Below, in pieces: positions 1 through 64,000 of a DNA stretch of 64,000 nucleotides. The stretch is from Termitomyces sp. T153 (lineage: Eukaryota > Basidiomycota > Agaricomycetes > Agaricales > Lyophyllaceae): contig JACKQL020000002.1 in NCBI GenBank assembly GCA_018296165.2, forward strand, positions 62,001 through 126,000, written 5' to 3'. How positions within the stretch are numbered: position 1 is the first letter of the stretch; every line of letters starts with the position of its first letter. A program made the translations under genes and the position numbers. Below the pieces are notes generated by a model. The model ran no database searches. It saw only the letters and a list, made by a program, of their open reading frames with translations, and was not told the origin of the DNA.

Positions 1-490
1 TGCTCAATGCTTAGCTAATGATCACAGCAAAATTTCTGTATGACTGACAGTTAAAATTTTGTGTATTTTCTAATGTACAGTATTATTAACATTATGCATA
101 GTTGAATTTTCAACATCAAAGAGATAACATCATAAAAGGTCCTGTTAAGGAAGAGCCACATTTCTAATCTGATATACATATTGCTATAACATCCACTTGA
201 AAAAAATTTTAAATGGTTGTTACCTTCATCAATTGTTTGTAAATTTTAATATTAAAAGTCATTATACATATTTATTTGTATTGGAATGAAACAAAGTTCC
301 CTAAATTACATTTCTTTACAAGTGAATATTAATATTGGATCAACATTGGATACTATTATTCATATGGAATAACATTGTATAGCCACTATAACATTTATTT
401 GAATAAACTTGGCAAATATTACTCTTGTTCATCATTGAAATGAACTGTATTACTTGTATTATGCTATTAAGGACAATTAATCTACAGTTT
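1..490. other. AT-rich, CpG-free sequence without a gene
   Basis: No coding pattern, RNA gene or recognisable element was found here. The stretch is very AT-rich and contains no CpG that I could see, like the rest of the left flank. It probably belongs to decayed repetitive DNA. Confidence 0.5.
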
Positions 491-491
491 T

Positions 492-745
492 TTATAGTTT
501 CTTCAGCCAAGAGGTCCAGTGCCATACTTGGACAAATACCAGAGTGACTGCTTTGCTGATGATGTTGAGGATGAGGGGCAAGGATTGTGGTGCACTGATA
601 TCAGCAAGGAAATTCCATAACCAACACAGCTGTTGACCAGTTTCACTAGCTGTAACAAACTCTGCATGGCTGCTTGGTAAGTTGCCTGCTAAGGCAATTT
701 CACTTGTGCTCCAGTTGGCTTCACCAAAGATGTATGGGTTTTGAG
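492..745 (-). mobile_element. Ty1/copia RNase H fragment (decayed)
   Basis: The minus-strand reading resembles the C-terminal RNase H-like end of a Ty1/copia polyprotein. It has a GEANW start, an SSHAEFVTASETGQQLCWL segment that matches the family pattern of a Ser-rich turn, an AE(F/Y)V motif and a WL(R)NFL helix, then a PQS(L/S)P(L/T) stretch. The region corresponding to the DN-(Q/K)-A motif is altered and the frame ends soon after. No LTR, integrase or other pol part is adjacent, so this is a relic. The family call rests on motif order only. Confidence 0.5.
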
Positions 746-984
746 TGAGTATGAAGAGAGGTGCAGGTGCAGGTGGTGGTGGTAGTGAAGGGTATGGAGC
801 ATGGGCAGAGGAGGAAAAGTGGCTTGAGAGGGAGATGGAGACAGAGATAGGGGGTGCTGAGGAGGTGCTGGGGGGTGTAGAGGGGCTGTAGGGATTTTGG
901 TGTGGGAACCAAGGGAAATTATGTGCTTGTGTGTTTTCTTTTCTTTTCTTTTGTGGGTCATGCTGATTTGATATTTTTAAGCAT

Positions 985-1235
985 TGTATAATGTGAATAA
1001 GGATGGGGTGAAGGTTACTGTGCTTACTTTTGCAAAGGGGGCAGATAGGCTTGGGGAGATACTTAAGGGTGTTGTGGAGGTTAATGAGAGGCAGAGTCAG
1101 GCAAGGGTTGTTCAGGTGCATTTTGGGTTTCATCACTATGCTAAAACAGCCATATTCATATTTTCATATGTATATGCACTACATGTAAACAACTCTCAGT
1201 CATCCTCAAAGTGCATGAACCCACCTTTGTTGTGA
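985..1235 (+). pseudogene. Fragment of an unidentified gene (VNERQ segment, copy 0)
   Basis: A short plus-strand coding-like stretch ends in VVEVNERQSQARVVQ and a GT donor. The next 120 bases match the same segment at 22,371-22,540, at 32,070-32,260 and, inverted, at 9,700-9,870. This copy extends about 30 residues further upstream than the others (VKVTVLTFAKGADRLGEIL), so it preserves more of the original exon. I do not recognise the protein. CpGs in the other copies are TpG or CpA here. No intact gene can be assembled. Confidence 0.45.
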
Positions 1236-1239
1236 TTTT

Positions 1240-2275
1240 TTTTGGTTGGTCATTGATGTAATTTATTGTAGTTAACATATGTGTATGATTTACTATTTAT
1301 GTATGCATTATGACTTTGATGTATTAAATAGATGCATCCAGTTTGTGGAGTAGGTTGGCAGCAGTACATTTGAAATTGGAGGTGAATATAACAGGTATTC
1401 ACAGGTAAAGTCTGCATGGGAGTTTGTTGAATATTAGAGGAATGGAGAGTATACTTATGCCTGCATGAAATGTGAGAACAGTCACAAGGTTAAACAATGA
1501 CTACAATGACTGTGTCAATGCCTCAACTTACTGGAACTAGCAGTATTATCCACTTGCCCAAAGTATATGAACCTAAGTGGAATTTGAGTTCTAGAATGAC
1601 AGAAAGCATAGTGTACCATTATGTAGAAAAACCTTAAAAAGAGAGCTCTGAACCCTATTACCCCATCTCAATGACTTATTGTCATACAGAGAATGAGTAT
1701 GTCAAACATGAGTGTCTCAATTGATGTGTTTGATTGGTATATCCACAATCATGGAAGGATCAGCTATAATGATTAATCTTATCATTTTTATCAGAAGGAT
1801 AAAGCATTTGCACTATTATAAGCTTGAGTCAGCTCTGATTCAATTTCAAAATAAATCATTGTAATAATTACCCTTTGCAATCTAGCAGTAGGTAACAGAC
1901 CAGTGATGAGACTTTGATGATAGGGGAAGGTTAAGATGGTAACTGCAAGGCCTGCATGTACATATAAATATAGGTACTTGCATATTATGGTCATACAGTG
2001 CATAGGTTTGCATTATGAAGAGTACTGATGTATAGAACATTGTTAATGAGTGATGGGGAGGTAGTTGGTACTTTTACATAACTCCAACAATAACTTGAAT
2101 GATCACTTCTAGATATTGATGATAGAGTGCCAGTGAGGTGCATCTAGTAAACAGGATTCTGAATAATTTTCAAATTACACAGGTGCTAATACTTATGTCA
2201 AGAATGCTCATGTCAAAAAGGCTCAAGTAGTGATTGAGGTAAAAAAAGTAAAAGGCCCATGAGAGCAATTGCAAG
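1240..2275. repeat. CpG-free repeat flank shared with the NLR 3' flanks
   Basis: No gene is visible. Parts of this stretch, read on the minus strand, match 27,330-28,260 and 36,100-37,100 (the region around 1,540-1,600 matches about 27,840-27,900). It is therefore the left-arm counterpart of the sequence that lies beyond the Tc1 remnant 3' of each NLR-like gene. Confidence 0.55.
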
Positions 2276-2277
2276 GG

Positions 2278-2580
2278 CCAAAATTGCTCCATTCTGGCAG
2301 GAAGTGTCTCATGGTTTGAGGACAACAACATTCAAGTGCCTTTCTGGCCTGCACAATCCTTAGACATTAATCCCCAATGAACACCTGGAGGTGCACTTGA
2401 AGAAGAGGTTGGATTAATACCCAACACCATTAAAAGAAGTACATAAGTTGTAGGAGAGTGTGGTAGAGGAATGGAAGAACATCCCTCAAGAAACATACTA
2501 GAAGCTGCTAGAAGGCCCAAGAAGAAGGATTCATGCAGTCATTGAACCCAAAAGTCATATCAAATATTAGTTAGGATTTT
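2278..2580 (+). mobile_element. Tc1/mariner transposase C-terminal remnant
   Basis: Frames on the plus strand give a decayed Tc1-type DDE transposase end: WFEDNNIQV, then WPAQS-DINP, EHLE-HLKKRL, VVEEWKNIPQE and RRRIHAVIE in order. This matches the family layout (NPIEHLW, LKRRL, EW-IP, RRI-AVIEA). Stops and frameshifts interrupt it and the catalytic N-terminal half is missing. A terminal-inverted-repeat-like CACTGTA lies at 2,737-2,743. The homologous remnants at 27.2 kb and 35.5 kb sit in the same position relative to their NLR-like genes. Confidence 0.75.
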
Positions 2581-2804
2581 AATAGAGGGTGTAATGCTGT
2601 TCCAATGGCTGAATATTTTGTTTTGATTTATTACACAACAATTTCTATAGGAATGAGTTGATCTAGAATGCATTATCAAGCAACTGCATAGGACCTTTAC
2701 ATATATTCATTTGGGAATTAATCATTTATTGATTGTCACTGTATAAGCTGGTCTTTACAAAATGATCAAACATTGAGATAATTTGTTAAACTATTGTGGA
2801 ACTT

Positions 2805-2925
2805 GTTGCTGCATTTATTCAGCCCCTTGAAGCTTTTCAGCTCTGGCTAGAGTCAACCAAAGATTCTTCATGCTACTAAAAATACAAGGATGATCATTTC
2901 CCCACTCTTTGCAGTAACATTGCTT
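2805..2925 (-). pseudogene. Detached TPR unit of the NLR family
   Basis: Minus-strand sequence reads GNDHP, SSMKNL, TLARAEKLQ and MQQQV, one 42-residue TPR unit of the kind in the adjacent NLR-like gene. It has an internal stop and ends at the same point where the other two copies stop, just before the Tc1 terminal repeat. About 670 bp of unrelated sequence separates it from the end of the main gene. Confidence 0.65.
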
Positions 2926-3590
2926 GCAGGCCTATTAACTAGTGGGACTGTAAGCTCAGCCAGTGCAGCCCCTTGCCTTCTGCATTGCCCTCTCCTTTTG
3001 CCTCTTGCTGGACACTTGTCCCTTGCCCAGTGTGCCTTAGGGCCAGCTTACCTGTTGCCACTGGTGGCCTGATGGGTCAGATATTGAGTAGTGGGCTTGG
3101 CTTGGACAATCCATGGTCAATGTTCCCTTACAATGGCCCTGAACTTCAGCAGTGAAGAGGTGAGCATCCAATGAGAAGCAAAGGCAGAGGGCAAGGAAGA
3201 AGGTGAGAAGCCACACTGGCTGAGCATGGAGTCCCACTAATGAATAGACCTGGAAGTGATGCTATTGTCAGCACTGAGGATATTCTATCCTTGAGTCCTT
3301 CCTATATACTACATTGGCTGGCACTATGACTACTACCTAATGACTAAGAGACAGCCACTGACTAAGTGCTATTGACTAAGTAGGCTGGTATGTAACAGGA
3401 GTACAGTAAGCAACAGTAATCAGTGCTGAATAATGCCAAGACAAAGTATGTAACTCGGTATAACATATAGAATGGCTTCTGGAGACCAGAGACCAGCTGA
3501 TCTGTCAGGTGATGATGGCAAGATGGAAGGAGAGTAGGAGTGGGTGGGGTGGCACCAGGGATGGCTAGATAGAGTGCTGAGCCCCAGATG
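2926..3590. other. CpG-poor spacer between TPR remnant and NLR1
   Basis: No gene recognised. Short open frames exist on both strands but none resembles a known protein. The stretch interrupts the TPR array relative to the other NLR copies, so it is probably an insertion or rearrangement junction. Confidence 0.4.
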
Positions 3591-6500
3591 CTAAGTCTGG
3601 ATAGAGTGGAGCCAGTCTAAAACCAGTCTCTTTTCAATAGCTAGGACCTTGTCCAGCATCTCTTCAGCCTCTTGAAGCTTTCCAGCTCTTTGTAGAATGA
3701 CCTTGAGATATTTCATGCTATCAAGAGTATTAGGATGATCATTACCTAATACTCTTTGCTGAATAGCTAGAACCTGTTGCTGCATCTCTTCAGCCTCTTG
3801 AAGCTTTCCAGCTCTGAATAGAGTGTTTCCAAGATTGTTCATGCTACCAAGAGTATCAGGATGATCATTTCCTAATACTCTTTGCTGAATAGCTAGGACT
3901 TGTTGCTGCATCTCTTCAGCCTCTTGAAGCTTTGCAGCTCTGAAGAGAGTGACACCAAGGTTGTTCATGCTATCAAGAGTGTCAGGATGATCATTACCTA
4001 ATATTCTTTGCTGAATAGCAAGGAGCTGTTGCTGCATCTCTTCAGCCTCTTGAAGCTTTCCAGCTCTAGATAGAGTCAATCCAAGATTGTTCATGTCACC
4101 AAGAGTATCAGGATGATCATTTCCTACTTTTCTTTGATTGATAGCAAGGACCTGTCTCTGCATCTCTTCAGCCTCTTGAAGCTTTCCAGCTCTGGATAGA
4201 GTGTTTCCAAGGTTGTTTAAGCTATCAAGAGTATCAGGATGGTGATTTCCTAATTCTCTTTGCTTAATAGCTAAGACCTGTTGCTGCATCTCTTCAGCCT
4301 CTTGAAGCTTTGCAGCTCTGAATAGAGTCAACCCAAGGTTCTTCATGCCATCAAGAGTATGAGGATGATCATTACCTAATACTCTTTGCTGAATAGCTAG
4401 GACCTTTTGCTGCATCTTTTCAGCCTCTTGAAACTTTCCAGCTCTGAATAGAGTGTTGCCAAGATTGTTCATGCTACTAAGAGTACCAGGATGATCATTT
4501 CCTAATAATCTTTGCTGGGTAGCTAGGACCTGTTGCTGCATTTCTTCAGCTTCTTGAAGCTTTCCAGCTCTGCATAGAGTGCTTCCAAGATTGTTCATGC
4601 TACCAAGAGTATCTGGATGATCATTTCCTAATTCTCTTTGCTGAATAGCTAGGACTTGTTGCTGCATCTTTTCAGCCTCTTGGATCTTTCCAGCTTTCTG
4701 GAGAGTGTTTTCAAGATTGTTCATACTACCAAGAGTATTAGGATGATCAATACCTAATATTCTTTGCTGGATAGCTAGGAGCTGTTGCTGCATCTCCTCA
4801 GCCTCTTGAATTTCTCCAGCTCTAGATAAAGTCAATCCAAGATTGTTCATGCTACCCAGAGTATCAAGATGATCATTTCCCAAATCTCTTTGCTTAATAG
4901 CTAAGACCTGTTGCTGCATCTTTTCAGCCTCTTGAAGCTTTCCAGCTCTGAATAGAGTGTTTCCAAGATTGTTCATGCTACCAAGAGTATCAGGATGATC
5001 ATTTCCTAATAATCTTTGCTGGGTAGCTAGGACCTGTTGCTGCATTTCTTCAGCTTCTTGAAGCTTTCCAGCTCTGGCTAGAGTGATCCCAAGATTCTTC
5101 ATGCTACCAAGAGTATCAGGATGATCACTTCCTAATACTCTTCTCCAAATACCTAGAACCTGTTGCTGCATGACTTTAGCCTCTTGAAGCTTTCCAGCTA
5201 TGGATAGAGTGGTTCCAAGACTGTTCATGCTACCAAGACTATCATGATGATCATTTCCTAATACTCTCTGCCTGACAGTTAGGACATGCCTCTGCATCTC
5301 TTCAGCCTCTTGAAGCTTTCCAGCTCTGGCTAGAGTAATCCCAAGACCATTCATGCTATCAAGAGTATCAGGATGATCATTACCTAATACTCTTTCCTGA
5401 ATAGCTAGAACCTGTTGCTGCATGTCCTCAGCCTCTTGAAGCTTCCCAGCTCTGCATAGAGTGCTTCCAAGATTGTTCATGCTACCAAGAGTATCAGGAT
5501 GATCATTTCCTAATACTCTTTGCTGAATAGCTAAGACCTGTTCCTGCATCTCTTCAGCCTCTTGGAACTTTCCAGCTCTGGCTAGAGTCAATCCAAGATT
5601 GTTCATGCTACTGAGAGTATAAGGATGATCATTTCCTAATTCTCCTTGCTGGATAGCTAGGACCTGTCGCTGCATTTCTTCAGCCTTTTGAAGCTTTCCA
5701 GCTTTAGTTAGAGTGTTTCCAAGGCTGGTCATGCTAACAAGGGTATCAGGATGACCATTTCCTAATACTCTCTGCCGGATAGCTAGGACTTTCCCTTGCA
5801 TCTCTTCAGCCTCTTGAAAATTTCCAGCTCTTTCTAGAGTGTTTTCAAGATTGTTCATGCTACCAAGAGTATAAGGATGATCATTTCCTAATACTCTTCG
5901 CTCAACAGCTAGGACCTGTTGCTGTATCTCTTCAGCCTCTTGGATTTTTCCAGCTTTCTGTAGAGTGTTTCCAAGATTGTTCATGCTACCAAGAGTATCA
6001 GGATGATCATTTCCTAATTTTCTTTGCTTAATAGCTAGAACCTGTCTCTGCATCTCTTCAGCCTCTTGAAGCTTTCCAGCTCTGGATAGAGTGTTTCCAA
6101 GATTGTTCATGCTACCAAGAGTATCTGGATGATCATTTCCTAATTCTCTTTGCTGAATAGCTAGGACCTGTTGCTGGATTTCTTCAGCCTCATGAAGCTT
6201 TCCAGACATATTCAATGCATGTCCTAGCCTGTTTTGCCAGGTGTAAAGCATGTCAGGTTCTTTTTTTTTGATACCATCTATGATTTTTTCCAACTCCTTT
6301 ACAATCTCACTCCACAATTCAGCTTTCCACAAGAATTCAATAAAGACCTCAGCAGTTTTCAACTCTAATAATGTGTCATGATGCAATCTTCTCACATGAG
6401 GCAGCCACAATTGTACATCATTGTAGAGGAAGTCCTTCTTTCCCAAGCAATAATATACTTGTGAAGCAAACTGATGTATCTCCTCCTTTTCTTTTTCTGA

Positions 6501-8824
6501 TAAAAACTCATGACAACATTGTTGAACTAGAGGATGTATTGTTACCAGGTTGTCTCCAATCCTTTCAACCAATGAATAAGATGAAAGCAATTTCATTGTA
6601 TCATCCATTAGCATTTCATCCCACTTTACATCATGAAAAAATAAAGTTAGAAGCCTCAAAAGCTCCTGGCCTTGATTTCTTTCATCAGTACTGACATTGT
6701 TCCATGCTCTGTGGAACATATCTATAGGAATTCTGCTATAATGGCAAACACTCCAAAAGTTGAGTGTTGCCTTTGCCTTGACATCAAGTTTGTCATAGCT
6801 AATTTTCCAAGTGGAGTAAACTGACAAGGAGTAATTATCAACTTTTTGCCTTGATTCATGTTTCAAAAACCTCTTTTTATTTGCTCTATACTTCTCAATA
6901 TATTGGTCAAATCCCATCCATTTCTCTTGTAACAAGTAATGACCAGCTTGCACAATAGCTAGAGCAAAATAGCCAAGTTCTTGAACTAGATCTTTGGCTT
7001 CTGTACTTGGAGATAACTCAGATTTGCCACAAATTTTGTATAGAAGATCAATTGCATCATCTTCTGTCAACTCCTCAATCCTGTCATTTTGGTGAGGAGC
7101 ATGAATTGTGCAATCTTGATTTCTTGTAGTGATGATAATGTTCCCATGTTGGCAGGAGGGGAAAAAAGACTGTAGAGCAATTCCTGGGTCATCTGCATTG
7201 TCAAATATCGATAATCAATCTTTCTGCTGGTGGTACAGGATTTTAATGCCAGCAGCAGAATTTGGTTCAGGAACTTTTGCCTGACTAGCAATAAACTTGT
7301 AGAATTGTTCTATAGAAACTCTTGAGCTTGCATCAATCAAATATACAGATTCAAATCTTAACAACTGTTCAGATGTAGTATAGTATATCACAACACCTCA
7401 CCTACCTTGACTTATGCATTGCTAAAAACTGCAGCACAATTTGTGTCTTTCCAGCTCCTCCTAAACCATACAAAACATATCTTTTCTGCACTTTTTTCTT
7501 CACTGATCCATGATCTGTGGCAAAGTAGTAATCTAACTTTGTCAAGATATCTTTTCTTCCAGTAAAGACTTGAGTAGGTGCAGGAATCTGATAAATGTCT
7601 TCTATAACAGCAGTTTGGACATCTTGAGACAGCTGAGACCCTCTGAAATTTCCTACAGAAATCTTGCAGGGACCGGCATGTAAAGCTTGCACTAGATCAT
7701 CAAGATGGCCATCAACACTAGGGTGATGCAAGTAAGCCAAAGTGTGTGACTTGATCTCTGATAGCTTCTTTGGATCATCAAAAGTAGCATTCTGTAGACC
7801 TTGGTCTACATTCAGCCTATAAAACACACCAGAAATGTGCTTAAATTGCCTTGTCAACTCTGCAGCAACAGTTTCACTGTCAGTTGCAATCCTACTGACA
7901 AGGTTCAACATCTTGCTTGCATCAGTAGATTGCAATGAAATTGGACCAAGCTGCCCACAACCAATGCTAACAAGGCAGGCCACATGTGCAGAGGGACCAA
8001 ACACACTCTCTACTTCCTCAAGAAGAAGTTTGGTAGGGTTACTAAATCCCAGATTACCACCAATGAAAGATTCTTGGATACCCCCATCTTTAATCAGTGC
8101 AGGCTTAAAAAGTCCAGGGATAGCAGTGGTCACACGTGCTGCCTCTACAATGGTGCAATTATAACCCTGATTTGCACCCACCATGTATGAACGAAAAAGT
8201 CGTGGTGTCATGTGTACTGCAGGGAGTGCCACAACAAAACTAGAAATTGCAAATTTAGCTTCATTCTATCCAGTAACAGAAAATCAGACAAACCTCCTAC
8301 AACACTTATCATCTTGTAACAGAGCATTGGGAAGCAGTCCACAAGACTTGATTATTGCCTTCATCCCATCTTCAAAAACTGAGGCTTTAAACATCTCCTT
8401 TTTGTTTCTTGCCTTCCTATCTAAGAAGACATGAGAAGTGAAGCGAACATATTCCTCAATGGCCTGGTCAATAGGCATCCCAAGTCGTCCAAGAATCAAT
8501 GCAATAAGACTAATATTACTGGTCAGTAACTAACAATATTGACAATAGGTAGATCATTTAAAGACGTACCCTCCTGTGCCAACACCACCAATGAGATCAA
8601 AATACTCGCAGGGTTTTGGAACTGTGTTGGCATGAGTAATGAACTTAAGCCTGTTCATGAGCTCCTGAATGATCAGCAGCTCGGAGAGACCACGGGTACC
8701 GCCATCGTCTACGTTGATTGTGCCAGATTAGTACTATGAGTAACATGACAAGAATCAGCCTACCAAGAGCGAGAAGCCTGAGCCCACGTTGAGCTTGTAC
8801 AATTTCAGTATCAGTATTCTGCAT
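3591..8824 (-). pseudogene. NLR1: patatin/NB-ARC/TPR NLR-like gene with one premature stop
   Basis: Five exons can be placed at 8824-8764, 8708-8570, 8509-8294, 8239-7406 and 7356-3591, all with GT-AG introns identical in position to NLR2. Together they make 1,671 codons. The N-terminal patatin-like domain has DGGTRG (oxyanion loop) and GVGTGG where an active patatin has GTSTGG. The NB-ARC follows with P-loop GLGGAGKT and IFDNADD. The rest is about 20 kinesin-light-chain-type TPR units of 42 residues. The Trp codon before the Walker B motif is TGA at 7215-7217, the only break I found. A sequencing error or readthrough cannot be excluded. Related fungal NLRs (such as PLP-1) act in cytoplasmic allorecognition and cell death, so a similar role is inferred. 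CpG is nearly absent below position 8,130. Confidence 0.85.
3620..6235 (-). repeat. Array of about 20 TPR-coding 126-bp repeats in NLR1
   Basis: Each unit is 126 bp and encodes 42 residues with the pattern LQEAEEMQQQVLAI-QR-LGN, then DHPDTL-SMNNLG-TL-RAGK. I count about 20 intervals, plus a divergent first unit (LHEAEEIQ) and a last one (LQEAEEMLDKVL). Neighbouring units differ by only a few residues, mainly at the positions after LG and TL and in the helix after VLA. This suggests recent amplification and exchange between units. Confidence 0.9.
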
Positions 8825-9109
8825 GGTGCGATTTCAATCCTGGCGATAGGTCTGAGAGATGGCAAAAAGATGGGAGATGGCAAAAAGATGGGTGCGAACT
8901 TGCCGGGGTAAATCAGATAGAACCAAAACAACTGATCTCACGCTTTGACCGACGCCGCTGTCCTGCCTTCCAGAATGTTCTAACGCTGGAAAGATAATTC
9001 TAAATGGAGCTCAAGCACAAGCCCGATTGTTAAAGGAAACTGTGTGCCTTTTGTTCTCTCACCCTTTCCAAATCCAAAGACATCCACCAGCTCGCAGTAG
9101 ACGTTACAG

Positions 9110-9395
9110 GGTATGTTGACGCCGCCGCACGGGACCGCAAGACCGCGAAAAGGAACGCGAGAGGCTCGACCGCGAACGAGAAAACAACAACAATAGCACA
9201 TCCTCTCCGAACACCTCTGCGCCAATGACCCAGCCACCACCGATTTCAGCATCTGCTCCTCTTCTGACAACACCAATTTCCCTCAGTCGCGGGTCCAAGT
9301 CATCCTCCACTCCATCACAGGCCGACGCGACTCTGCACACTGGCCCGACTTCCCCCCCAGCCTTTCTCCTAGCCCCGTCCAGGTAGGGTCGGATG
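9110..9395 (+). pseudogene. Fragment of an unidentified gene (Arg-rich/Ser-Pro-rich exon)
   Basis: A plus-strand frame reads DREKERERLDRERENNNN followed by a Ser/Thr/Pro-rich stretch and ends at a plausible donor (CCAG/GTAGGG near 9,387). Charge and codon use look like a genuine exon of a low-complexity regulatory protein. The mirrored copy at 23,195-23,400 (minus) has lost the frame. No start or further exon is visible, so it is a duplicated gene fragment. The protein is not recognised. Confidence 0.4.
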
Positions 9396-9448
9396 GCGTA
9401 AGGACTACATGGCAGCAACCGATCCCCGGATTAGCGTTGTGCGTAAAC

Positions 9449-10240: not shown

Positions 10241-10290
10241 ATGTACCCCTAGCGTACCACCCATTCAAGTGGGTCATTTTAGAAGATTGT
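10235..10290 (-). promoter_or_regulatory. Orphan GGN-family promoter box (left arm)
   Basis: Contains the near-palindrome GTACCCCTAGCGTAC at 10,243-10,257, followed by the CCATTCAAGTGGGTC block shared with the promoters of the GGN-protein genes. No GGN gene follows on its downstream (minus) side. The mirror position in the right arm (20,711) is an orphan too. Confidence 0.6.
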
Positions 10291-11350: not shown

Positions 11351-11439
11351 TGGTATGATATTTTTCTTTCCGATTTGTGAAGGTGAAAGGTGGTGCTGGA
11401 GCGCCACAACGTGACATTGGGATGTGATGAACAGGGGAT

Positions 11440-54381: not shown

Positions 54382-54470
54382 GCTCTGCTATTGATCAGTA
54401 TAAACCTTGTGAATTATACCCCATTCTACGCACCTCCGGTCAGGTGGGTGCGAAATTCTCTTTTTTTTAC
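54382..54470. promoter_or_regulatory. Short divergent promoter
   Basis: Only 89 bp separate the two divergent start codons. No clear TATA box is seen on either strand. Confidence 0.5.
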
Positions 54471-55179
54471 ATGTCGATGGAAGCCAAATTCAGAGAGCCA
54501 CGTGCGTCGGACTCAGAGATCCAGTCAGAAGGCTTGCCCATCATGTTGCCCAACACTCAGGCAAGCTCAAGTCTGAGCGGGTATGCGCCTGCAGTGCAAA
54601 GTGGATTCCCTGCTGGCCCGGCATTCCCGAATCAACCAGGGTTTATATCCTCAGAACAAAATCTCCACCAAGGAACTGATCCAAATTCTCCTGCCTCTTT
54701 TCACCAAAATCTGCAAATCGTCCAAGAACATGTGGCGCGTCTTCAAAATCTTGCACGCAATACATTATCCGGAATGTGAGTGTTCCTTTGAGACGCGTGT
54801 CCTTTGTACGCTCAAACGTATGCAAACCCTGTAGACAAAATGCTTACCATCCAGGCAACAGCCTGGTACAAACTCAAGGTTCTAATAAGACATCTCCAGC
54901 TGTTCTTTTTCCTTCTCACACGCTTTGTCAGCGAATCTAGGAACACTCAAAGAAGAGATAGAAGAACTTTCGCAATTGATGCTGCGGAGTGGTGTCGGTG
55001 CACTGCCTCTGCTCCCCATACCTGCCCCAGGTGAAACTATGTCACCCCCGACGGAACAGCAACTGCTAGCAGAAGTCAATGACTCGATTCGCTCTGCGTT
55101 CGAACAAATGAAACGCAGTCAGGATAGCGCTTCTGTTGTTGCCAACCTTCTGGGAGCACCAGATCGTATTTCAAAGTGA
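54471..55179 (+). CDS. Unrecognised small protein, 198 aa
   Basis: Exons 54471-54775, 54835-54878 and 54932-55179 give one frame from MSMEAKFREP to GAPDRISK. The N-terminal third is Ser/Gln/Pro-rich and disordered-looking. Two helical segments follow (QIVQEHVARLQNLARNTLSGI and LGTLKEEIEELSQLML), then a short Pro-rich linker and a helix (LLAEVNDSIRSAFEQMK). Coiled-coil use is plausible. I do not recognise the family. It is divergent from the methyltransferase, probably with a shared promoter. Confidence 0.65.
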
Positions 55180-55796
55180 GCCGTCGGGCTCCTTTAAACT
55201 CACATTTGTCCCATTATGGGTGCCTATCAGTGGAGGATTCTGCAGAGAAGAACAGGCGCTCGCATTCATGCACGTACAGGCCATCGTTCGCGTTACTCAA
55301 CGACAAGCTTCTTTTCGACTATCGCCCAAATTCCTTCATCAATTACCCCTTCCCCTGGCCGGCCTGTCTGCTAGACCATACTGCCTATGTGAGCGCTGAA
55401 TTGATTTTACTCAGTATCAAATACTCCGATATAAATCTCGCATTTGAAATGGGTCATCCCGGCTTTTTGTCAATCATTTTCGAACGTGCTTTCCGGAAAG
55501 CCTTTTACTACTCAGATGTGATGTTCATCCTAACAATTGGCCCGATATTATTTGCTATCTTGTGAATATCAATGATCAAGATGTATATGAACGCAGGATT
55601 TCGGGATAATTCTCAGTTCATCCATTGTTATACATCCATAGTATCGAGCGCCAGATCGAATCTGTCATGACCTTAAGCATGAAGCTTGAAATGCGGTAGC
55701 GCCGGTCCTCCTTGTGCTAGACCTGATCTGACCCTTGAAAGAGATTTCAGAACGACACCAACAGCGTCTCCTTGTCCGGTATTTGAAAAGTAGTCC
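55180..55796. other. Intergenic, no supported gene
   Basis: A plus-strand frame (55,176-55,565) overlaps the stop of the preceding gene and has no domain. I treat it as 3' sequence. Confidence 0.4.
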
Positions 55797-56250
55797 TTAC
55801 CCAGTATTTGAAACGTACTTCTCACCGGATACTACAAAGGCTGGAATAGCCTGACTACTTCCAAGTTCCATGTGAGTTGTCAGTTCCTCGTGATCATAAG
55901 AGTCAAGGATCTCGCGTGCCGACCATCGCATAATTGATTTATCAATAGGACTCCACCAGATATCTATCAACGTGGATATTAGACGTGGTGCTGGGGCAGC
56001 AGAGCTCCATTCATATGGATCCATGAGCCCCATCCGTGTATGACCGACAGGTTGAGGCTGTGCATGTGGATTAGTTCTCTGTCTTGATCAGCTCGATAAA
56101 TCCGGACCACTTACGAGAGTGCCATTAAGATTAAGACTCATCATGAACGTGCATTCTGCCCCGGCAGGGACGAGGTCAGGGAGATATGACCTCTGGCGAA
56201 AGCATCAGGACGCATGGAGAAAGAAAGCTGGTGAATCGCTTATATCAAAA
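55797..56250 (-). CDS. Hypothetical spliced gene, partial
   Basis: Minus-strand frames read RSYLPDLVPAGAECTFMMSL and NLNGTL, then a GTAAGT donor near 56,115. After an intron the reading continues PQPVGHTRMGLMDPYEWSS, LISTLIDIWWSPIDKSIM and WSAREILDSYDHEEL, then GTAAGG near 55,796. Codon use and donor signals look real, but neither end is clear and I do not recognise the family. Confidence 0.35.
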
Positions 56251-56567
56251 TGTTATGAAGAGGTGAAATGAGCGGAACATCCGACGACAGCAATCAGGAA
56301 GTTCTACCCTGGACTTGTACACAGAGATTCTAATCGGGCTTAAACTGACCAACGAATTTTCAGCATGAACCTTATTGGTAGGAGGCGAGTCGTTGTTGCT
56401 TATACAATGCACAAGCAATTACAGCATATGTCCAAGAAAGATTGCTAACGGATACGCTGTGAGTCTTTGACCAATCCAGCTGTCAATGTAGAAGCAAGTT
56501 TCTCACAAGCATTGAAATTTTGAAGCAGTGCAACAACCAAGTTCCTCATAATGGAATACACAAGAAT

Positions 56568-57993
56568 TTAATACCATCCACGTTTTACAAAGTCGGTCAA
56601 GCTGTCCCGCGTCACTTGTTCCTGATTCAAATATGTCAGACCAAGGATCCTTGCCGCTTTACGAGTGTCAAACTCGACAGGCAACTTTGCTGTGTCTGCA
56701 AGCCCTGGATACCCAATGGGAAGCTTGGAATGTGAGGGGATTGGCAATGAGAGCGAATTTGCTACATCAACTGGTGCACGGTCAGCAATGTTGAAATGTG
56801 GTCCAGTGGGCAAGCACTTACCCCATTGCTGCCAAATGAATGGTCCCGCTGAGATGATAATTCGCTCACCCCCCGCTGCTTCATTTTCCAAGGCTAGAAC
56901 GTTCGCTTCAGCGACGTCACGCACATCGATGAAGGCTAAGCCCGTCTTGAGAAAGTCTTCAGTTTGGCCTCCGACAACCACAACGTCGTACCAAAGCCGT
57001 AATGAGGTCCCGAGGGCATCAGAGCTCTTGAGCTCGTGTACGGGAGGCTCATAGAAAGTCAGCCTTGATTCATTTACACGCGTCACTTACTCACCCCAAA
57101 GACCTGCGTCTCTTAATCTATAGCTTATATTATCATGCGGGAGGGTACTCACGTAAGAAGGGTTGAGAACGGAGAGGTCCCATGAAATCCCAGTCTTGTT
57201 GTCCTCGTAGAATTGCCAGGCAGCTGGAGAAGAAACATAATGCTTGCGTCCGCTTAGAACGGGATGTAAAAAGGCAACTTACCTCTCTCCGCGGCAGTCT
57301 TGGATGCATAATATTTCACGTAACCCGCAGCATCAGCACCCTTTTCCTTGATTTCTATGACAGAAGGCTCGTTCCAGTCGTCCTCATTCAAGAGTTTGTA
57401 CACGCTAAAGTCAGAGACAGCCGCCACAGAGGATATCACTACCACACGTTTTACCTCTTGCCTGAAAGGTAGACAGTCAGCAAAAGAGGATAGTGTTGCG
57501 AAAAAGGACCGTGGACCGACCCGTAAGCAAGAGCACTCTTCAGGATGCCAACAGTTCCATTCACTGCCGGTTCCAAAAGTTCTAGACACCAAGCTAGAAA
57601 TCAGCCGGTAGCTCTTCGGGTTTTGACGGCTTTCTTGCCATTTACTGATACAGCATCGAAATTGCAAGGGGATGCCGTATGTATGATAGCCTGGATACCT
57701 TTGACAGCTTCGTCGAAGGCACCGGACTGAGCCACAACATGAGTCATTAATCAGCCTCTGTTCAAAGTCTCGAGCACGAATGGTCAAACCTTTGCAATGT
57801 CCTCAACAATTATAAATTCGAATTTGTGTCCATAGGCCTTGAAATATTCCTCGAGATACTTTGCTTTGTCGGCAGAGCGTACGGTCCCGCGCACCGCGTA
57901 TCCTTTCTCAAGCAATTTGCGTACGATCCACATGGCAATAAAACCATTAGCTCCTGTTACAAGGACCTTGTCACCCGAAGAGATAGTGTGCAT
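56568..57993 (-). CDS. NADP-dependent extended SDR reductase (cinnamoyl-CoA/dihydroflavonol reductase-like)
   Basis: Exon 1 (57993-57790, 68 residues) has [21 protein letters not shown], the NADP-binding Rossmann start, and VRGTVRS that selects NADP. Later exons give [48 protein letters not shown] (catalytic Ser), [12 protein letters not shown] (YxxxK), and [10 protein letters not shown] 9-nt exon VFG (57,082-57,090 on the plus strand) and PPVHEL follow, then [16 protein letters not shown]. The C-terminal end is [11 protein letters not shown]. Fungal members reduce aldehydes or ketones in detoxification or secondary metabolism, and the substrate is not predictable. The donor/acceptor near 57,600 could not be fixed with certainty. 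Confidence 0.85.
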
Positions 57994-57999
57994 AGTCGT

Positions 58000-60265
58000 C
58001 AGAAGGACGAGGGTAAACGCGCGCTAGTACTATTGAATGTCACCCTGCCACTGCATTTCCACGTTTTATAAGAAACTAAAGAGCCGAATTTGTGTTGTTC
58101 CGGCCTTGAGCGCAGCCATTGGCCTGGAACTGGCACGTTCTTTGTGATGTTGAGTCAGGTGGACTTGACCACAGAGGGAGTTTATGTCAAGGCCAAGAAA
58201 CCAGAGCCAGGTTAACTCTATTGGCACGAAAGTATGATCATTTACGTGATTAGTGGGGATAAAACTCGAATCCAACTTGACAGATTGGCTCCGGCTCCGC
58301 CCGTTCGAAAGTAGGCTTCTGTCCAGCTTGTCTTTGGGCTTGGCCCAGGTTTTCCACGCGTTTCGTGCAAGTATCGTGTGGCGCAATTTGAAGTGCACTT
58401 TTGGTTCCGATGTTCTTCCAAATAACATTCGCCTACTAACAGTAATATTCTCTCTTAAATGGCCAGGGGAATCATATTGAAATCACTTTTCCCTAAGAAA
58501 CGGCATCCTGTGGGGTAGGTGTAACAAAATTCGGCCAATAAGCAAAAGGCTTATCGCACACTTCCTGCGTCTTTAAAATAGGTGGATTGAACCACAAATG
58601 AAGATCGATAGATTACACAAGTTCTGAGACAGGTCAACAATCAATCTTGTGTGGGCGTGTCTGAGTGGGATTTTCAACAATAACCTTCTGTGCGGAAACT
58701 TCGAGTTGTTCAAGCGCAAAATCAACCTATACATACCTGAAATGTTCAAAAGTAGGAATCCTATCACATGTTACCTGGTGTCTTGAGACTGCACAGGAAT
58801 TGTGCTTGAGTTAGTACTAGTGATATACAGGTCCCGCTCAGTCTAGAAGTCGCAATTTGGGCTCGGCAGATATGAACAGCCGGTCCTGATGACGAGGCTC
58901 AGGCTTGGGTGCGGCTTTGGATGAAATTCGAGTTCTATATCCCTCTTTTAGCAACAAAAAGATGGGGATCTAACTACGTAAGAATGTCCCTGATCACACA
59001 GTCTTTGCTTCTGATCAAGGATATCAGCCACCCGACCTATTTTTGCTGATTTTCGACCTTTAATATTCAGGAATCAGAGTAGATCCAGGAATGGAATTGC
59101 ATTTATTCATATTACAGGATGTGTTTATGTGTATAATATTGGCTATGTGGCGCAGTTGGGTGAAGTCAATGACTGTATCGATATCTCTTTAGCGAGCAAC
59201 TCTTAACTTTCGGTAGCTCTCCTTCTCAGAACCTCCATTCAGATCGGCAGAATAACTCAAGCTGATGCTCCATCTCTGTCGGATATGGGTCAATGCCACT
59301 GTTACTTTATTACTTTATTTGATATCTACCTATTGTTTACCTGCACTTCCAAATGATTTGCACTTCCAAATGATTCCAAATGACATCTGGATCCCTTGTA
59401 CTGACTGAACTTGCCCAAATTAGGCAGCTTCGAAGTTCCGCCTGTTTGGCCAGATGCCGGGTTTGCCGAAGGATAGAATGAGTACATCAAACGCATGAGG
59501 ATCTTGTGATGACATTCATCCCTATGAGTTGCACTTATCAAGAAGTATTGATACAAGGCGCTGGTGTACCTCGTGTTTCGGCGAGCCATTCAAGCGTGTC
59601 CGGACTTGTCAGCCGGAATTGGCGGATGTCTGTTAACCAACAAACTCAATGGCATTGAAGTAACCCGTTGTGAGCATCCTGGAAGTCGGCTCTCTGGATA
59701 TGTGACACCTCATATTACATAGAGCAAGAAGGTAAGTGATTATGCTAAGTTTACACGAGCCACTCTTCGACAAGCCCGGCATGAGGCTAAACATGCGGAA
59801 CTTGTGAAAGTCCAGTCAGTACAAGGGATCTGAATACCATTTGGAGGTGCTAAACGGTGGCATTGACCGTATGAGACGGAGATAAAGCGTCAGTTCTGTC
59901 AATCTGAGTGGAGGGAAGGAGCTGCCAAGAGTCAAGAACCGTCACTGACTAAAGAAATATTGATCAGTCAATTGCTTCACCCAACGGCAGCCTGGGCTGC
60001 TTCTTTAATGTGAAAGCAGCGCGAATTATGCATCCAAATGTGTGCGCCGAGGTGCGCCGGGATGTGCCAAGCAGCTCGATATTCCCCATCTCTTCAAAGC
60101 AGTCGAAGTGTGGTTCGATTTTGCTAATAATGGAGATCTCTACCCACCACGTCATGTGGTGTGACATCTTGTGACCCAGGTCAGCTGACTTCCATAAATT
60201 TAATCAATTCCGAGGTCTTGATCCCCCGTCAAATTTTGTCTTCAATTTTGTTTCCATGTGACTTG
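58000..60265. other. Long intergenic stretch, no supported gene
   Basis: Frames at 58,066-58,428 and 59,326-59,589 have no recognisable domains. CpG content is normal. I see no tRNA or repeat family shared with the rest of the window. Confidence 0.45.
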
Positions 60266-60271
60266 ACCCGT

Positions 60272-60490
60272 GATGTATAGCCGACGATATAGCCAGAGGT
60301 TGTCTTCAATTTTCACTCTGTACTGGTTACCTTTTCAATATACACATGATGTATAGCCAACAATATAACTGGAGGCTGTCTTCAAATTTTGCTCTCTTTC
60401 AGTTACCTTCCCGTTATGCATGTGATGTGTATCGAACAATATAGCTGGAGGTTGTCTTCATATTTTGCTCCCTTCCAGTTGCCTCCCCAC
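60272..60490 (+). repeat. Three tandem units of about 75 bp
   Basis: Units start near 60,272, 60,348 and 60,422. Each begins GATGT(A/G)TA and contains a TATA(G/A)C-(A/G)GAGG-TGTCTTCA core and an (A/C)AGTTACCTTCC-like end. They diverge by roughly 15-25%. They lie exactly where the CpG content falls. Confidence 0.75.
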
Positions 60491-60785
60491 CAACTGCCTT
60501 CTATCTTTTTTATATTGTTATTTTTTATATTTTTATTTTTGTTTGTATTATTTTTTGTTATTTTTTATTTTCCATATACTTGACTGTTGCTATTTAGATG
60601 ATGGATACATCCATAACTCACAACTATAAGATAAAAGTGTTACATAAATATTATAGTGATCCCTATCTCACCAGTCAATACATGTCAGCAGATGAGAACA
60701 TGTGGTTCCATGATGGTCCAGTAACAAATTACCAGATGGTCAAAAAAGGAGGTCTTTGAACAGCATAAACAGGTTGGAAAGCAAA

Positions 60786-61362
60786 TTCAAAAGTGTGACA
60801 ATTGCAGTGTATGTGCTTGCAGACCAATTTGTCATCTATATCACATCAAATAACAGCATTGGATTTGAACAAACTAAAGCAGTCCTGAATATGGAATGAT
60901 CAATTTGATATGGCAGTTACATGATTTGTCATGTACTATTGCAGCAATTGGTTTATAATCAGTCACATGATCACCATTACATCAACATTGATGTAACAAT
61001 AAGTGATATTCTACTGATTGATTTGTAATCATTTGCTCTAGCACCTGTTTAGATAATCACAACACACATATTATTGATCTAGGTTTTACTGTCCTACTCC
61101 ATCCAGCTTTTTTGTGTTTTGTATATCCATAGACATGTCACAATGCAGGTCCAAAGGTGTGACAATTGCAGTGTATGTGCCTGCAGACTAACTTGTCATT
61201 TATATCACATGAAATGACAAGCATACAAATGACAGCATTGGATTTTAACAAACTGAAGCAGTCCTGAATATGGGATGATCAGTTTGATATGGCAGTTGTA
61301 TGATTTGTCATGTACCATTGCAGCAATTGGTTTATCACATAATCATCATTACATCTCTATAG
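60786..61362 (+). repeat. Two direct copies of a 200-bp CpG-free sequence
   Basis: About 60,790-60,990 and 61,147-61,362 match over most of their length (shared start GTGTGACAATTGCAGTGTATGTG, broken here only by single changes). A 160-bp spacer separates them. Identity unknown, perhaps a decayed element. Confidence 0.7.
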
Positions 61363-61369
61363 TATGAGC

Positions 61370-61656
61370 TATGGTCTAAGGAGTGTGTTGCCTCTCATGC
61401 TGTCCAATGTCCAATATCACCTCCAGTAATCCAAATAAAAGTATCCCTGTCCACAAACCTAAAATTATATTAGTGAGCAAGAAAGACTGCTGAAGTTACT
61501 GACATCTCAACATAGTACTATTTATAGCCCAAATTTTCCTCATCTACATGGTGAGCTATAAATGGGCCCAGCAGGGTATTTGTATAGGATCCTGCAAATT
61601 ATGGAATCAGATGGACTGCATAAAGAACATCTGCTGGGTTGACAAATCCAAAAGCC
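61370..61656 (-). mobile_element. KDZ ORF fragment cut by a gypsy LTR
   Basis: Minus strand: FGFVNPADVL, ICRILYKYPAGPIYSS, and further on VCGQGY-Y-DYWR, the same part of the KDZ-type protein as at 29.34-29.6 kb. The match stops at about 61,656, where the LTR-like TGTTAGGGAAC begins. The upstream half of the KDZ gene is missing. Confidence 0.55.
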
Positions 61657-61992
61657 TCCTCTGTTAGGGAACTTCCATTTCTGGCCTCTGTGGCTTGCTC
61701 TAGACCTCTGCAGCTTTCTCTAGACCTCTATGGCTTGTTCCTAACCCCTGGAGATCTCCAGAGACCCCCAGAACTTCCTGCATTACCTCATAAATTACTT
61801 CTCTAGGGTTAGGGCTAGCTCCAATCTTCTGTATAGTCATTCCCATGCTTCTGCTACTCCCTGATGCAATGTACTGAGCAGTGGGAATCCTTAGACTTGT
61901 TCCCTTCAGATTCCCCTCTGCTAGGTGATTGGTTACTGTTGTATTGTTGTCTACTACTTGCTAATATACTTCAGATTTCCCTCTGCTAGCTG
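61657..61992 (+). repeat. Candidate 5' LTR of a Ty3/gypsy element
   Basis: Begins TGTTAGGGAACTTCC and could end GCTAGCTGCA, giving TG...CA termini. It is followed by about 140 bp and then the gag frame. The start is supported by the break in the KDZ fragment. The 3' end and primer-binding site are guesses because the second LTR is outside the window. Confidence 0.4.
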
Positions 61993-62136
61993 CATAATTG
62001 AGCCACCACTCCTAGAGGTTGCTCTTATAGCAGAACAAGTCTTTATCTCTAGTCTGGAAGCCCCATGTAGCCTGATAGGAACCTCTAGGCCCCTATCTGT
62101 CACTTCCACACCAGACTTAAGCACCTGCAGAATTCT

Positions 62137-64000
62137 ATGTCTCAGCTTGTTAATCCAGACAATCCCCTGGAGGCTCCAGCCCCTCAGGACAAAGCCAGGA
62201 CTCACTTGCTACACCAAGAGAACCAGGTGCAACTGACTCAATTATTCCTCACTCATCATACAACTGAACTCTCTACTTTCCACCAGACCACTGATCATAT
62301 TTCCCAATCCCTTCAGGCACTGCTAGAATGCCTCCCTCCTATCTCCACACAACTCCTGGTGGTTCTGGTAGTTGCTTCCATAGCTCTGCTGTCCTTCCAA
62401 CTGCAGATCCCATGCTCTGTGCTCCTAGATACATACAACAGTGCTTGCTCTGGTGGGGAGCACTTCCTCCAGTCCTGTCTCACTTACATCCACCTTAGCA
62501 GAGACACCTTTGACTCTGATGCATTGAAGAAAGCTTGGGTGCTGTTGTATATGAAGACTGGATGGGCCTCCACCTACATGTTATAGGTGTTCCACTGCTC
62601 TAGAGGTGTCAGAAGTTTTGCAAATTGAGCTACCTTTAAAAAAGACTTCTGGACAGAGTTTTCCCTATTGACCCTGCCAAAACTGCTGCTTTAGTGCTAT
62701 GTGACAGAGAGCAGTATGAGCAAGGGAAGAGGATGCTAGACAAGTACATTGACTGTTTCTAGGCACTAGTCAAGCAAGCCATCTACTCTGACAGTCTCCA
62801 CCTATGCTTCATGTTCCAGAATAGCTTGCACCCCATGCTGATAGAGTGCATTGATAACTTGGCCAAGGGCTGCCCAGATAATGAAAGGATTGACTCCTGG
62901 TACAAGGTGGCCTGGAATCAGTGGCAGCTCATGGAGATCTAATAAGAGCTCTGCTGGTTGCACCCAATGCAGCACCCTGCTCCAGTTGCTAGTCTCCATT
63001 ACTCCACTCCTGCACTCACAGCATCTGCTCCTGCTCTGGCTGCCCCTGCACCATGCTCCTTGCTGCCAGGCACTCCCATGGACATAGATGCAGCCCAATA
63101 GCACTGCCCTGCACTGCTGCTATGCTAGAGATGCAAAAAACCAAGGAACTTTGCATAATACTGCCTGCTGGGTCTGGAGATACACTACCTCTCTATGGCT
63201 GAGCAGGAGGAGCTCCTCCTGCAGCTATTGGCTACAAAGGATGCTGCTGGAGCTCTGTCACTCAACAAGCTGGCAGCAGAGTTAGCTTTGGAGGAGATCA
63301 GTACTTGTGCACCTACTCCAGGCCTGAAGGAGGATTTTCAATTAAGCAATGGATGAGGTGTATGCCTTCATTGCTGAGTACTAACAGGTTCTCATGTCCA
63401 TCATTTGAAAATGAAATTGCCCTTTTTGATGTCAATCATTTTAAGACAGAAGAACCTCAGTGCCCACCTTCAGACATACAAATGCCAACTAAGGAGTCCA
63501 AGCCAAGCCCCCTGATACCAGCTAGGCTCCACTGGTGCTGCTCTGCCTAGGAGTGTTGACTGCCCCAGAGGTATGTAGTGGCCTCAAGCCCTTCTACCAA
63601 CTCACTGTGGCTTGATGTAGAAATTGAGACCATAGACACCCAACAAACTTGCAGAGTCACTGCTCTCCTAGATAGAGCAATGGAACTGTTCCTGGACTCA
63701 GAGTTTGTGAGGTGCCATGGCCTAACCACACAGCCTCTTCCTCAGCCCATTTTAGTGTTCAACATCAACAGAATGCCAAACAAAGCAGGCACCATAAGCT
63801 CTATGGTAGATCTTGTCCTATGCTATAGGAATCATGCTGAGCATGCAGTCTTTGCTGTTACCAGTTTAGACAAGCAGGACATGATCCTTAGTTTCATATG
63901 GCTCTGGGAGTACAAGTCCAGAGTAGACTGGGCCTAGAGCAAGGTAATAATGAGCTGGTGTCCTCAGAGGTGCTCTGCTTGTGCCTCCAAGGCCAAGGAA
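62137..64000 (+). mobile_element. Ty3/gypsy gag and protease, decayed and cut by window end
   Basis: Gag-like: LEAPAPQDKARTHLLHQ, a helical region, then KTGWASTYML, TFKKDFWTEFFPIDPAKTAA, MLDKYIDCF and DSWYKVAWNQWQLME. A zinc-knuckle region survives only in pieces (CY-RD-KNQG). Protease-like: LWLDVEIETIDTQQTC, and FLDSEFVRCHGLTTQPLPQP with the D(S/T)GA site destroyed (LLDRAMELF). It ends in MILSFIWLWE-K--VDW. Multiple stops separate the frames. CpG loss explains several of the changes. Reverse transcriptase would lie beyond the window. Confidence 0.8.

What the first reader, a model, noticed from the sequence alone, without database searches (positions are those of the whole stretch)
1..64000. 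Three blocks almost without CpG alternate with normal DNA
On reading, 24,430-38,900 contains only about three CpG (near 29,856, 38,436 and 38,747); 1-8,130 about seven; 60,500-64,000 almost none. 8.5-24 kb and 39-60 kb have CpG at ordinary density. Paired duplicated segments show the direction: CpG in 20.8-24.4 kb is TpG or CpA in 30.5-34.5 kb. Established knowledge: cytosine methylation with deamination, or a RIP-like process acting on repeats, gives this pattern in basidiomycetes.
Basis: partly seen in the sequence, partly recalled or inferred. Interest (0 to 1): 0.9.

Follow-up and report, generated by a model that had tools for sequence, protein, structure and literature searches.

The report
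CpG-free blocks in Termitomyces genome
In a termite-farmed mushroom's genome, repeated DNA and the bodies of some immune-receptor-like genes have lost nearly every CG letter pair, probably because methylated CG mutates away there very fast, while the starts of those genes and ordinary genes keep theirs.

Summary
In detail: CpG observed/expected is 0.02, 0.01 and 0.00 in the three blocks and 0.89 in both blocks between. The host is a Termitomyces. The mosaic is genome-wide: of about 130 kb in 13 preset samples, 75.5 kb is depleted, 48.1 kb normal and 6.1 kb intermediate. The change is CpG to TpG/CpA, without a classical CpA-type RIP signature. Repeat copies lost CpG independently; young copies are caught part-way. 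Rough estimates put CpG loss 40-250 times above other sites. Two DNMT1-RFD-like loci and one DNMT5-like locus are present. Best reading: CpG methylation of repeats, then deamination; a known kind of process in extreme form.

What looks new: six of six patatin-NB-ARC-TPR (NLR-type) genes whose 5' ends were read keep CpG at the start and first ~0.1-0.6 kb, then have an almost CpG-free body. Bodies are under purifying selection. A copy lacking the gene start is CpG-free throughout. This resembles gene-body methylation with a protected start. No methylation data could be examined.

The parts
1..8101 (.). CpG-depleted block 1: repeats at 1.1-2.9 kb and the body of the left patatin-NB-ARC-TPR gene
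8115..8678 (.). Graded switch zone inside the 5' coding part of the left NLR-type gene (7 CG of 105 CG+TG+CA)
   Evidence: homologous position in the right gene
3591..8763 (-). Left patatin-NB-ARC-TPR gene: start near 8,718-8,763 by alignment to P0124, likely intron at 7,359-7,404, TPR array of about 20 units of 126 bp, one in-frame TGA in the NB-ARC exon
8682..23901 (.). CpG-normal block between the two divergent NLR-type genes (822 CG of 3,028)
23794..27156 (+). Right patatin-NB-ARC-TPR gene (inverted duplicate; about 6 TPR units; start near 23,794-23,839); CpG-normal 5' end, CpG-free body
23916..24498 (.). Switch zone in the right NLR-type gene (7 CG of 114)
24524..38902 (.). CpG-depleted block 2 (3 CG of 2,514)
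28300..30400 (.). Multi-copy repeat within block 2 (55 matches listed, 40 candidates scored)
30458..35439 (+). Third, incomplete copy of the 20.8-25.5 kb segment; it lacks what corresponds to about 23,780-24,642 (gene start and first ~0.8 kb) and breaks off in NB-ARC; no CpG at all, also in the upstream part that is CpG-normal in the other two copies
37713..38262 (+). Fragment with a weak integrase match (rve, 22.8 bits, under its 32.6 cut-off), in a repeat family with at least 38 copies
38908..60438 (.). CpG-normal gene block (1,054 CG of 4,054) with a Methyltransf_16 gene at 53,248-54,381 (-)
60446..63995 (.). CpG-depleted block 3 (0 CG of 625); 61.4-63.9 kb is a multi-copy repeat (51 matches listed, 40 of 1,998 candidates scored)

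Best explanation
The nuclear genome is split into two compartments. Repeats, and the bodies of some repeat-bearing NLR-type genes, are persistently methylated at CpG in the germ line, kept so by DNMT1-RFD and DNMT5. 5-methylcytosine deaminates to T on either strand, so each CpG becomes TpG or CpA at random. In this compartment CpG is lost roughly 40-250 times faster than other sites change, until almost none is left; ordinary genes stay unmethylated and keep theirs. SHOWN: the two compartments, the CpG-specific direction, independent loss per repeat copy, partly decayed young copies, the enzyme genes by domain matches. INFERRED: that the CpG is or was methylated, and that deamination is the mutagenic step.
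For: At 124 CpG-derived sites of nine repeat copies there are 469 TG, 431 CA, 48 TA, 27 other and 3 CG among 978. All 36 pairs disagree at 39-63% of these sites although transversions elsewhere are only 1.0-4.7%, as expected if each copy arrived with CpG and lost it on its own. Nine copies of a younger, gypsy-type family retain 3-59% of the CpG-derived sites they cover (22-32 of 32). In four near-identical copies, about 5 loss events fall on 10 CpG sites (3 ambiguous sites set aside) against 7 variable columns in 1,350 others. Share of CG in depleted DNA: 76 of 13,567 CG+TG+CA in the samples and 9 of 4,450 in the window, which at equilibrium means about 90- and 250-fold (my arithmetic). No CpA-type RIP signature. 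One methylase locus with SNF2 (C37, DNMT5-like) and two with RFD (C4, also BAH; C121); two DNMT1 and one DNMT5 without DIM-2 or RID is the complement listed for Coprinopsis, Laccaria and Agaricus (PMC7862722, passages). Each of the four depleted stretches searched has other copies over most of its length.
Against: No methylation data. The speed exceeds what I recall for mammals (about tenfold), so plain deamination may need weak T:G repair or an active deaminase; the one UDG-family match looks like UNG by a recalled motif, but lack of TDG was not shown. A mild 5' preference T>A>C>G at mutated CpG in the repeat copies (47 sites; not significant in the 91 sites of the window pair) could hint at an enzyme. 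37.1-37.7 kb, depleted, showed no second copy among the 40 scored. The rate estimates rest on few events or on equilibrium, and the HMM picks the depleted DNA by its low CpG.
Confidence: 0.75

Rival explanations
1. A RIP- or MIP-like pre-meiotic process recognises duplicated DNA and mutates CpG in bursts, perhaps through a methyltransferase that also deaminates.
For: The four depleted stretches searched are repeats over most of their length; CpG mutation is very fast relative to other sites; mild T-before-C preference, a weaker form of the TpCpG bias reported for Pucciniomycotina (as cited in PMC4014442, passages).
Against: Young copies show different, graded degrees of loss (3-59% retained), though RIP too can be partial; no classical RIP index; no RID-like locus seen, with the sensitivity caveat.
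Confidence: 0.17
2. Assembly artefact: methylated C miscalled as T in the reads.
For: A miscall on either strand would also give TpG or CpA.
Against: The two window NLR-type genes share their TpG/CpA states: 4 TG/CA disagreements in 2,730 aligned columns (5 further sites have CpG in the left copy only), and a 237-bp tandem pair at 33,543-34,015 is 100% identical, so the states are inherited. Copies of one repeat family differ freely, so it is not an error fixed by context. In the left body 56 arginines are coded AGR and 3 CGN, against 4-7 AGR and 15-23 CGN in three CpG-normal coding stretches; miscalled CGN would have replaced arginine.
Confidence: 0.02
3. For the NLR-type gene bodies only (a sub-question): a heterochromatic domain seeded by downstream transposons spreads into the gene and stops at its promoter, so the body is a bystander.
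For: The 3' flanks of both window genes are CpG-depleted repeats.
Against: The switch sits near the start of the coding sequence in 6 of 6 members read, at 5 separate places (window, C24, two on C12, C108), and synonymous divergence between some members is near saturation, so it is a stable property of the family. The 3' flanks outside the window were not read.
Confidence: 0.35
4. Codon or protein selection, not mutation, removed CpG from the NLR-type bodies.
For: Arginine is kept through AGR codons in both window genes.
Against: Non-coding repeats and the short intron in the same blocks are equally CpG-free.
Confidence: 0.03

Closest known systems
CpG-biased RIP-like mutation with 5mC of transposons in Ganoderma sinense (PMC4457147, passages)
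   Same: Agaricomycete; C-to-T change preferring CpG in transposons that are almost all methylated; 98.7% of 5mC at CpG.
   Different: CpA is the second target there and the authors call it RIP; the passages I saw show no near-zero CpG compartment and no NLR gene-body pattern.
CpG hypermutation between nuclei of Rhizoctonia solani AG8 (PMC4014442, passages)
   Same: Agaricomycete; CpG to TpG.
   Different: Seen as heterozygous SNPs at similar levels in genes and repeats, about 40% CpG; here the ordinary genes sampled keep CpG.
CpG signature with Masc2/DNMT1-class genes in Pucciniomycotina transposons (PMC4352252, passages)
   Same: CpG-only signature, no RID, DNMT1-class enzyme; a MIP-like methylation then deamination was proposed.
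   Different: About 40% of copies or fewer carry it there; here CpG is nearly exhausted.
RIP and concerted evolution of NACHT-WD40 genes in Podospora anserina (PMC1805685, passages)
   Same: Multi-gene NLR family with internal repeats exposed to a repeat-linked mutator.
   Different: There RIP is CpA-type and clear in two pseudogenes, only suggested for live repeats; here bodies of apparently live genes are CpG-free with the 5' end spared.
Animal CpG islands and gene-body methylation (recalled)
   Same: CpG kept at the gene start, lost in the body.
   Different: Seen here in one NLR-type family; the CpG-normal genes sampled keep CpG in the body.

Membership tests
Classical RIP (Neurospora type) | CpA to TpA bias: TpA/ApT raised, (CpA+TpG)/(ApC+GpT) lowered (index recalled) | tested here: not met
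   TpA/ApT 0.76, 0.69, 0.81 in depleted and 0.70, 0.69 in normal DNA; second index 1.62-1.75 against 1.17-1.21.
Classical RIP (Neurospora type) | RID-class methyltransferase | tested here: inconclusive
   PF00145 matches at three loci, one with SNF2 and two with RFD; no RID-like locus, but DNMT2 was not found either, so sensitivity is limited.
Classical RIP (Neurospora type) | Limited to duplicated DNA, in the sexual cycle | tested here: inconclusive
   4 of 4 depleted stretches searched are multi-copy over most of their length; 37.1-37.7 kb showed no second copy among the 40 scored. Timing not testable.
CpG methylation-deamination of repeats (Agaricomycete DNMT1-RFD/DNMT5 type) | Mutation concentrated at CpG, both strands | tested here: met
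CpG methylation-deamination of repeats (Agaricomycete DNMT1-RFD/DNMT5 type) | DNMT1-RFD and DNMT5 genes | tested here: met
   (domain matches exon by exon; transcripts not confirmed).
CpG methylation-deamination of repeats (Agaricomycete DNMT1-RFD/DNMT5 type) | Graded loss with copy age | tested here: met
   (two repeat families).
CpG methylation-deamination of repeats (Agaricomycete DNMT1-RFD/DNMT5 type) | 5mC at the affected sites | not testable with these tools
   No methylation data held.
Patatin-NB-ARC-TPR NLR-type genes | Patatin, NB-ARC and TPR in this order | tested here: inconclusive
   In the window, Pfam finds TPR strongly and NB-ARC weakly (right ORF, 21.0 bits, under the 23.5 cut-off); the patatin-side ORFs 7,402-8,232 and 24,324-25,154 have no Pfam match. 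Both genes align from residue 16 of P0124, which carries all three domains, so patatin rests on that homology.
Gene-body methylation with protected promoter | Methylated, expressed gene body | not testable with these tools
   Only the mutational footprint and selection were measured.

The most novel reading that the evidence does not exclude
This fungus has true germ-line gene-body CpG methylation on a family of functional NLR-type immune or allorecognition genes. The promoter and first few hundred coding bases are actively protected; the bodies have been methylated for so long that they were rebuilt almost without CpG (arginines kept as AGA/AGG) while staying under purifying selection. Loss of the gene start lifts the protection: the copy in the window that lacks it has lost CpG upstream as well. 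NLR-type genes would thus live half in the silenced compartment, with a CpG-island-like switch at the start.
Probability: 0.45. Interest if true: 0.75.

Novelty: new variant of a known kind. Interest (0 to 1): 0.6.

Why it matters
CpG decay of transposons is known in basidiomycetes, but here it has run nearly to completion over more than half of the sampled DNA, so CpG content alone may map the long-term germ-line methylome from sequence. That lets one ask, without methylation data, which host genes have lived in the methylated compartment. The answer found here, NLR-type gene bodies with spared 5' ends, bears on two open questions: whether fungi have functional gene-body methylation, and whether repeat-directed defence shapes fungal NLR repertoires. 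The high CpG mutability also makes young Termitomyces transposons useful clocks.

Tried and rejected
Classical RIP was rejected on indices. A miscalling artefact was rejected on inherited states. I first took the C121 methylase matches for noise (note); the RFD search showed a second DNMT1-RFD-like locus. A search for TET/JBP oxidases gave nothing, but its controls did not ring, so it says nothing. The UDG search gave one match, which I read as UNG from a recalled motif; absence of TDG is not claimed. The boundary-crossing ORF at 38,562-39,200 (-) has no relatives (223 candidates, none at E 0.001 or better). Of 17 boundary-crossing ORFs listed I scanned 6: five had no Pfam match and one is the gypsy-type frame of L020. 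So the spared-5'-end pattern could not be tested on other genes. Differences between gypsy-type subfamilies outside CpG ran in both directions and looked like old, mostly silent changes, not a second mutation context. Copy L036 was dropped from the repeat alignment because it is rearranged. Purifying selection was not significant in the patatin-side exon (dN/dS 0.56, 0.29-1.17), nor for left against third copy over 102 codons (1.04). Ten paper searches were answered, three of them naming Termitomyces; none of the listings showed a report of this in Termitomyces. The T. cryptogamus map paper has 0 hits for CpG, methylation, RIP or transpos- in its main text (PMC10021994, find). The library holds only openly licensed papers. 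Horns et al. 2012 is not held.
Full report
WHAT IS THERE. The window is bases 62,001-126,000 of contig C2 in a 72.4-Mb, 307-contig genome. A window protein is 98% identical over its full length to one of Termitomyces sp. 'cryptogamus', the next full-length match being 66%, so the host is a Termitomyces close to that species. Three blocks have CpG o/e of 0.02, 0.01 and 0.00, and the two between them 0.89 each. A three-state HMM puts the switches at 8.1-8.7, 23.9-24.5, 38.90 and 60.44 kb.

IT IS GENOME-WIDE. In 13 ten-kilobase stretches at preset coordinates (not random, but chosen before anything was known of them), 75.5 kb is depleted, 48.1 kb normal and 6.1 kb intermediate. Of 260 windows of 500 bp there, 143 have o/e of 0.1 or less, 96 have o/e of 0.6 or more, and 21 lie between. 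The window is an ordinary sample of the genome.

WHAT IT HITS. Four depleted stretches of the window were searched in the genome (counts are lower bounds). 28.3-30.4 kb gave 55 matches and 61.4-63.9 kb 51. In 36.2-38.3 kb, the part 37.7-38.3 kb has at least 38 copies, 36.2-37.1 kb has 3, all within the window, and 37.1-37.7 kb showed no second copy among the 40 scored. The NLR-type segment 24.4-25.5 kb gave 7 matches including itself. Three of the seven intermediate segments were also searched, and are repeats with many relatives (79, 54 and 44 matches).

DIRECTION AND TARGET. Between the normal copy at 20.8-23.8 kb and the depleted copy at 30.5-34.5 kb, 114 aligned CpG of the first correspond to 48 CpA, 46 TpG, 20 other and no CpG. 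The main RIP index moves the opposite way from RIP; TpA/ApT rises slightly in blocks 1 and 3 only. There is a mild preference for T, then A, before the mutated C (443 outcomes at 138 sites pooled; carried by the repeat copies, which are related, so the errors are too small; not significant in the 91 sites of the window pair alone).

TEMPO. Nine copies of one repeat (weak integrase match) have 124 CpG-derived sites with 469 TG, 431 CA, 48 TA, 3 CG and 27 other among 978. Sites were chosen as having both TG and CA, or a CG; with nine copies few are left out if loss is independent. All 36 pairs disagree at 39-63% of sites, while elsewhere transversions are 1.0-4.7% and transitions 4.7-11.5%. So each copy arrived with CpG and lost it by itself; set against those transitions, the loss is about 40-105 times faster (my arithmetic). 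A younger, gypsy-type family is caught on the way: nine copies retain 3-59% of the sites they cover (22-32 of 32). Four of them differ at only 7 columns of 1,350 but show about 5 CpG losses at 10 sites, with 3 further sites ambiguous between loss and gain. That is about 70-fold over other C-to-T changes (5 of 10 against 4 of about 580 C/G sites; my arithmetic, roughly 20-270). The share of CG in depleted DNA gives about 90-fold (76 of 13,567, samples) to 250-fold (9 of 4,450, window) at equilibrium (counts). The estimates agree in order of magnitude; none is precise. The young element is itself CpG-poor (o/e 0.09 over its open frame), with 58 AGR and 12 CGN arginine codons.

MACHINERY. PF00145 matches lie at three loci. 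C37 is followed by an SNF2 domain on the same strand (DNMT5-like). C4 has RFD, BAH and methylase. C121 has an RFD match 2.6 kb upstream of its methylase matches. This equals the 2 DNMT1 plus 1 DNMT5 listed for Coprinopsis, Laccaria and Agaricus, without DIM-2 or RID (PMC7862722, passages). DNMT2, listed there as present, was not found, so the search can miss genes. The ten-kilobase stretches around C37, C4 and C121 have CpG o/e of 0.90, 0.90 and 1.01.

THE UNEXPECTED PART. Two switches fall inside a divergent pair of genes whose products align with patatin-NB-ARC-TPR proteins of other Termitomyces (P0124, P0126). In the window itself Pfam sees TPR and, weakly, NB-ARC, but not patatin. The genes are an inverted duplicate (5.4-9.0 kb against 23.5-27.2 kb, 92% identical) with the switch at homologous positions, 8,135 and 24,420. 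In both the start lies in CpG-normal DNA and the body is almost or wholly CpG-free. The same holds for relatives at C24 (84% DNA identity), C12:912 kb and C108 (about 40% amino-acid identity to the window genes in the NB-ARC exon). C108 is the weakest case: o/e is 0.58, 0.58 and 0.48 over the first 600 bp and only about 95 bases upstream of the start were read. I then predicted the pattern for the member at C12:482 kb, which is 85-95% identical to the J132 protein, and read 1.6 kb: o/e 1.12 before the start and 0.45 at it, then 0.00-0.15. So 6 of 6 members whose 5' end was read show it; about ten further match clusters, some of them fragments, were not read. The third copy in the window lacks the gene start and the first ~0.8 kb (what corresponds to about 23,780-24,642), breaks off in NB-ARC, and has no CpG at all, also over the upstream segment that is CpG-normal in the two longer copies.

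ARE THE CpG-FREE BODIES ALIVE? The left and right bodies share TpG/CpA states (4 disagreements in 2,730 aligned columns; 5 further sites have CpG in the left only), so depletion preceded their split, or gene conversion has spread it. Since then dN/dS is 0.42 (0.33-0.60) over 650 codons of NB-ARC and TPR and 0.32 (0.19-0.57) in the first 379. In the patatin-side exon it is 0.56 (0.29-1.17), not distinguishable from neutral. Right against C24 gives pN/pS 0.28 (0.20-0.36) at dS 0.45 in the NB-ARC part, and 0.39 (0.31-0.48) over 600 codons. Right, C24 and C12:912 kb have no stop in 601, 601 and 472 codons; the left gene has one TGA, and C108 has three stops in 637 codons. Left and right also share two stops in the patatin-side stretch; members nearly identical to annotated proteins show stops at a similar place, so introns are likely, but this is not proven. 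The left copy may be dying, and the right has a short TPR array. Arginine is kept as AGR (56 of 59 left, 28 of 28 right). A 756-codon open frame of about 14 WD40 repeats in another, fully depleted sample (L016) hints that other NLR-type genes share the state, though it does not show the AGR shift (5 AGR, 5 CGN); its 5' end could not be read.

WORKING MODEL. Repeats and NLR-type bodies are kept methylated at CpG by DNMT1-RFD and DNMT5; methylated C is lost by deamination; transcription starts are protected. The first two steps follow known biology of Agaricomycetes (PMC13297926, PMC4457147, passages); the protection is inference. Whether the bodies are methylated as such or lie in a domain spreading from downstream transposons is open. 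Most fungi are said to lack gene-body methylation, with exceptions (PMC7862722, passages), and a rust shows gene-body CpG methylation tied to lower expression of an allele (PMC12129025, passages).

VERDICT. The finding is real and its main reading is right in kind. The process is known; I saw no account of a form this extreme in the passages read. The NLR-type gene pattern is the part worth following up.

Noticed in passing
window 5,406-27,150: Large inverted duplication centred near 16 kb; arms are 92% identical in the NLR-type genes but 75-80% in the CpG-normal part between them.
   Followed up: partly
window 10,883-12,544 and 18,178-20,140: Tandem 9-, 18-, 27- and 63-bp repeats in both arms of the inverted duplication, CpG-normal; by eye of a Gly/Asn-rich coding type.
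   Followed up: no
window 33,543-34,015: Two perfect 237-bp tandem copies inside CpG-free DNA, so probably duplicated after the CpG loss.
   Followed up: no
L016:7,730-9,997 (-): 756-codon open frame with about 14 WD40 repeats in a CpG-depleted 10-kb stretch (frame o/e 0.065); perhaps another NLR-type gene.
   Followed up: partly
L045, L046, L047, L049: Young gypsy-type copies sit at contig ends, so the youngest transposons probably break the assembly and may be under-represented.
   Followed up: no
L020:145-4,008 (-): Gypsy-type element with an open 1,288-codon frame that is CpG-poor (o/e 0.09), as if adapted to CpG loss.
   Followed up: partly
G000 contigs C2, C4, C12, C24, C41, C56, C96, C108: About 16 patatin-NB-ARC-TPR match clusters, some fragments; four have open frames of 1,540-1,748 aa.
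   Followed up: partly
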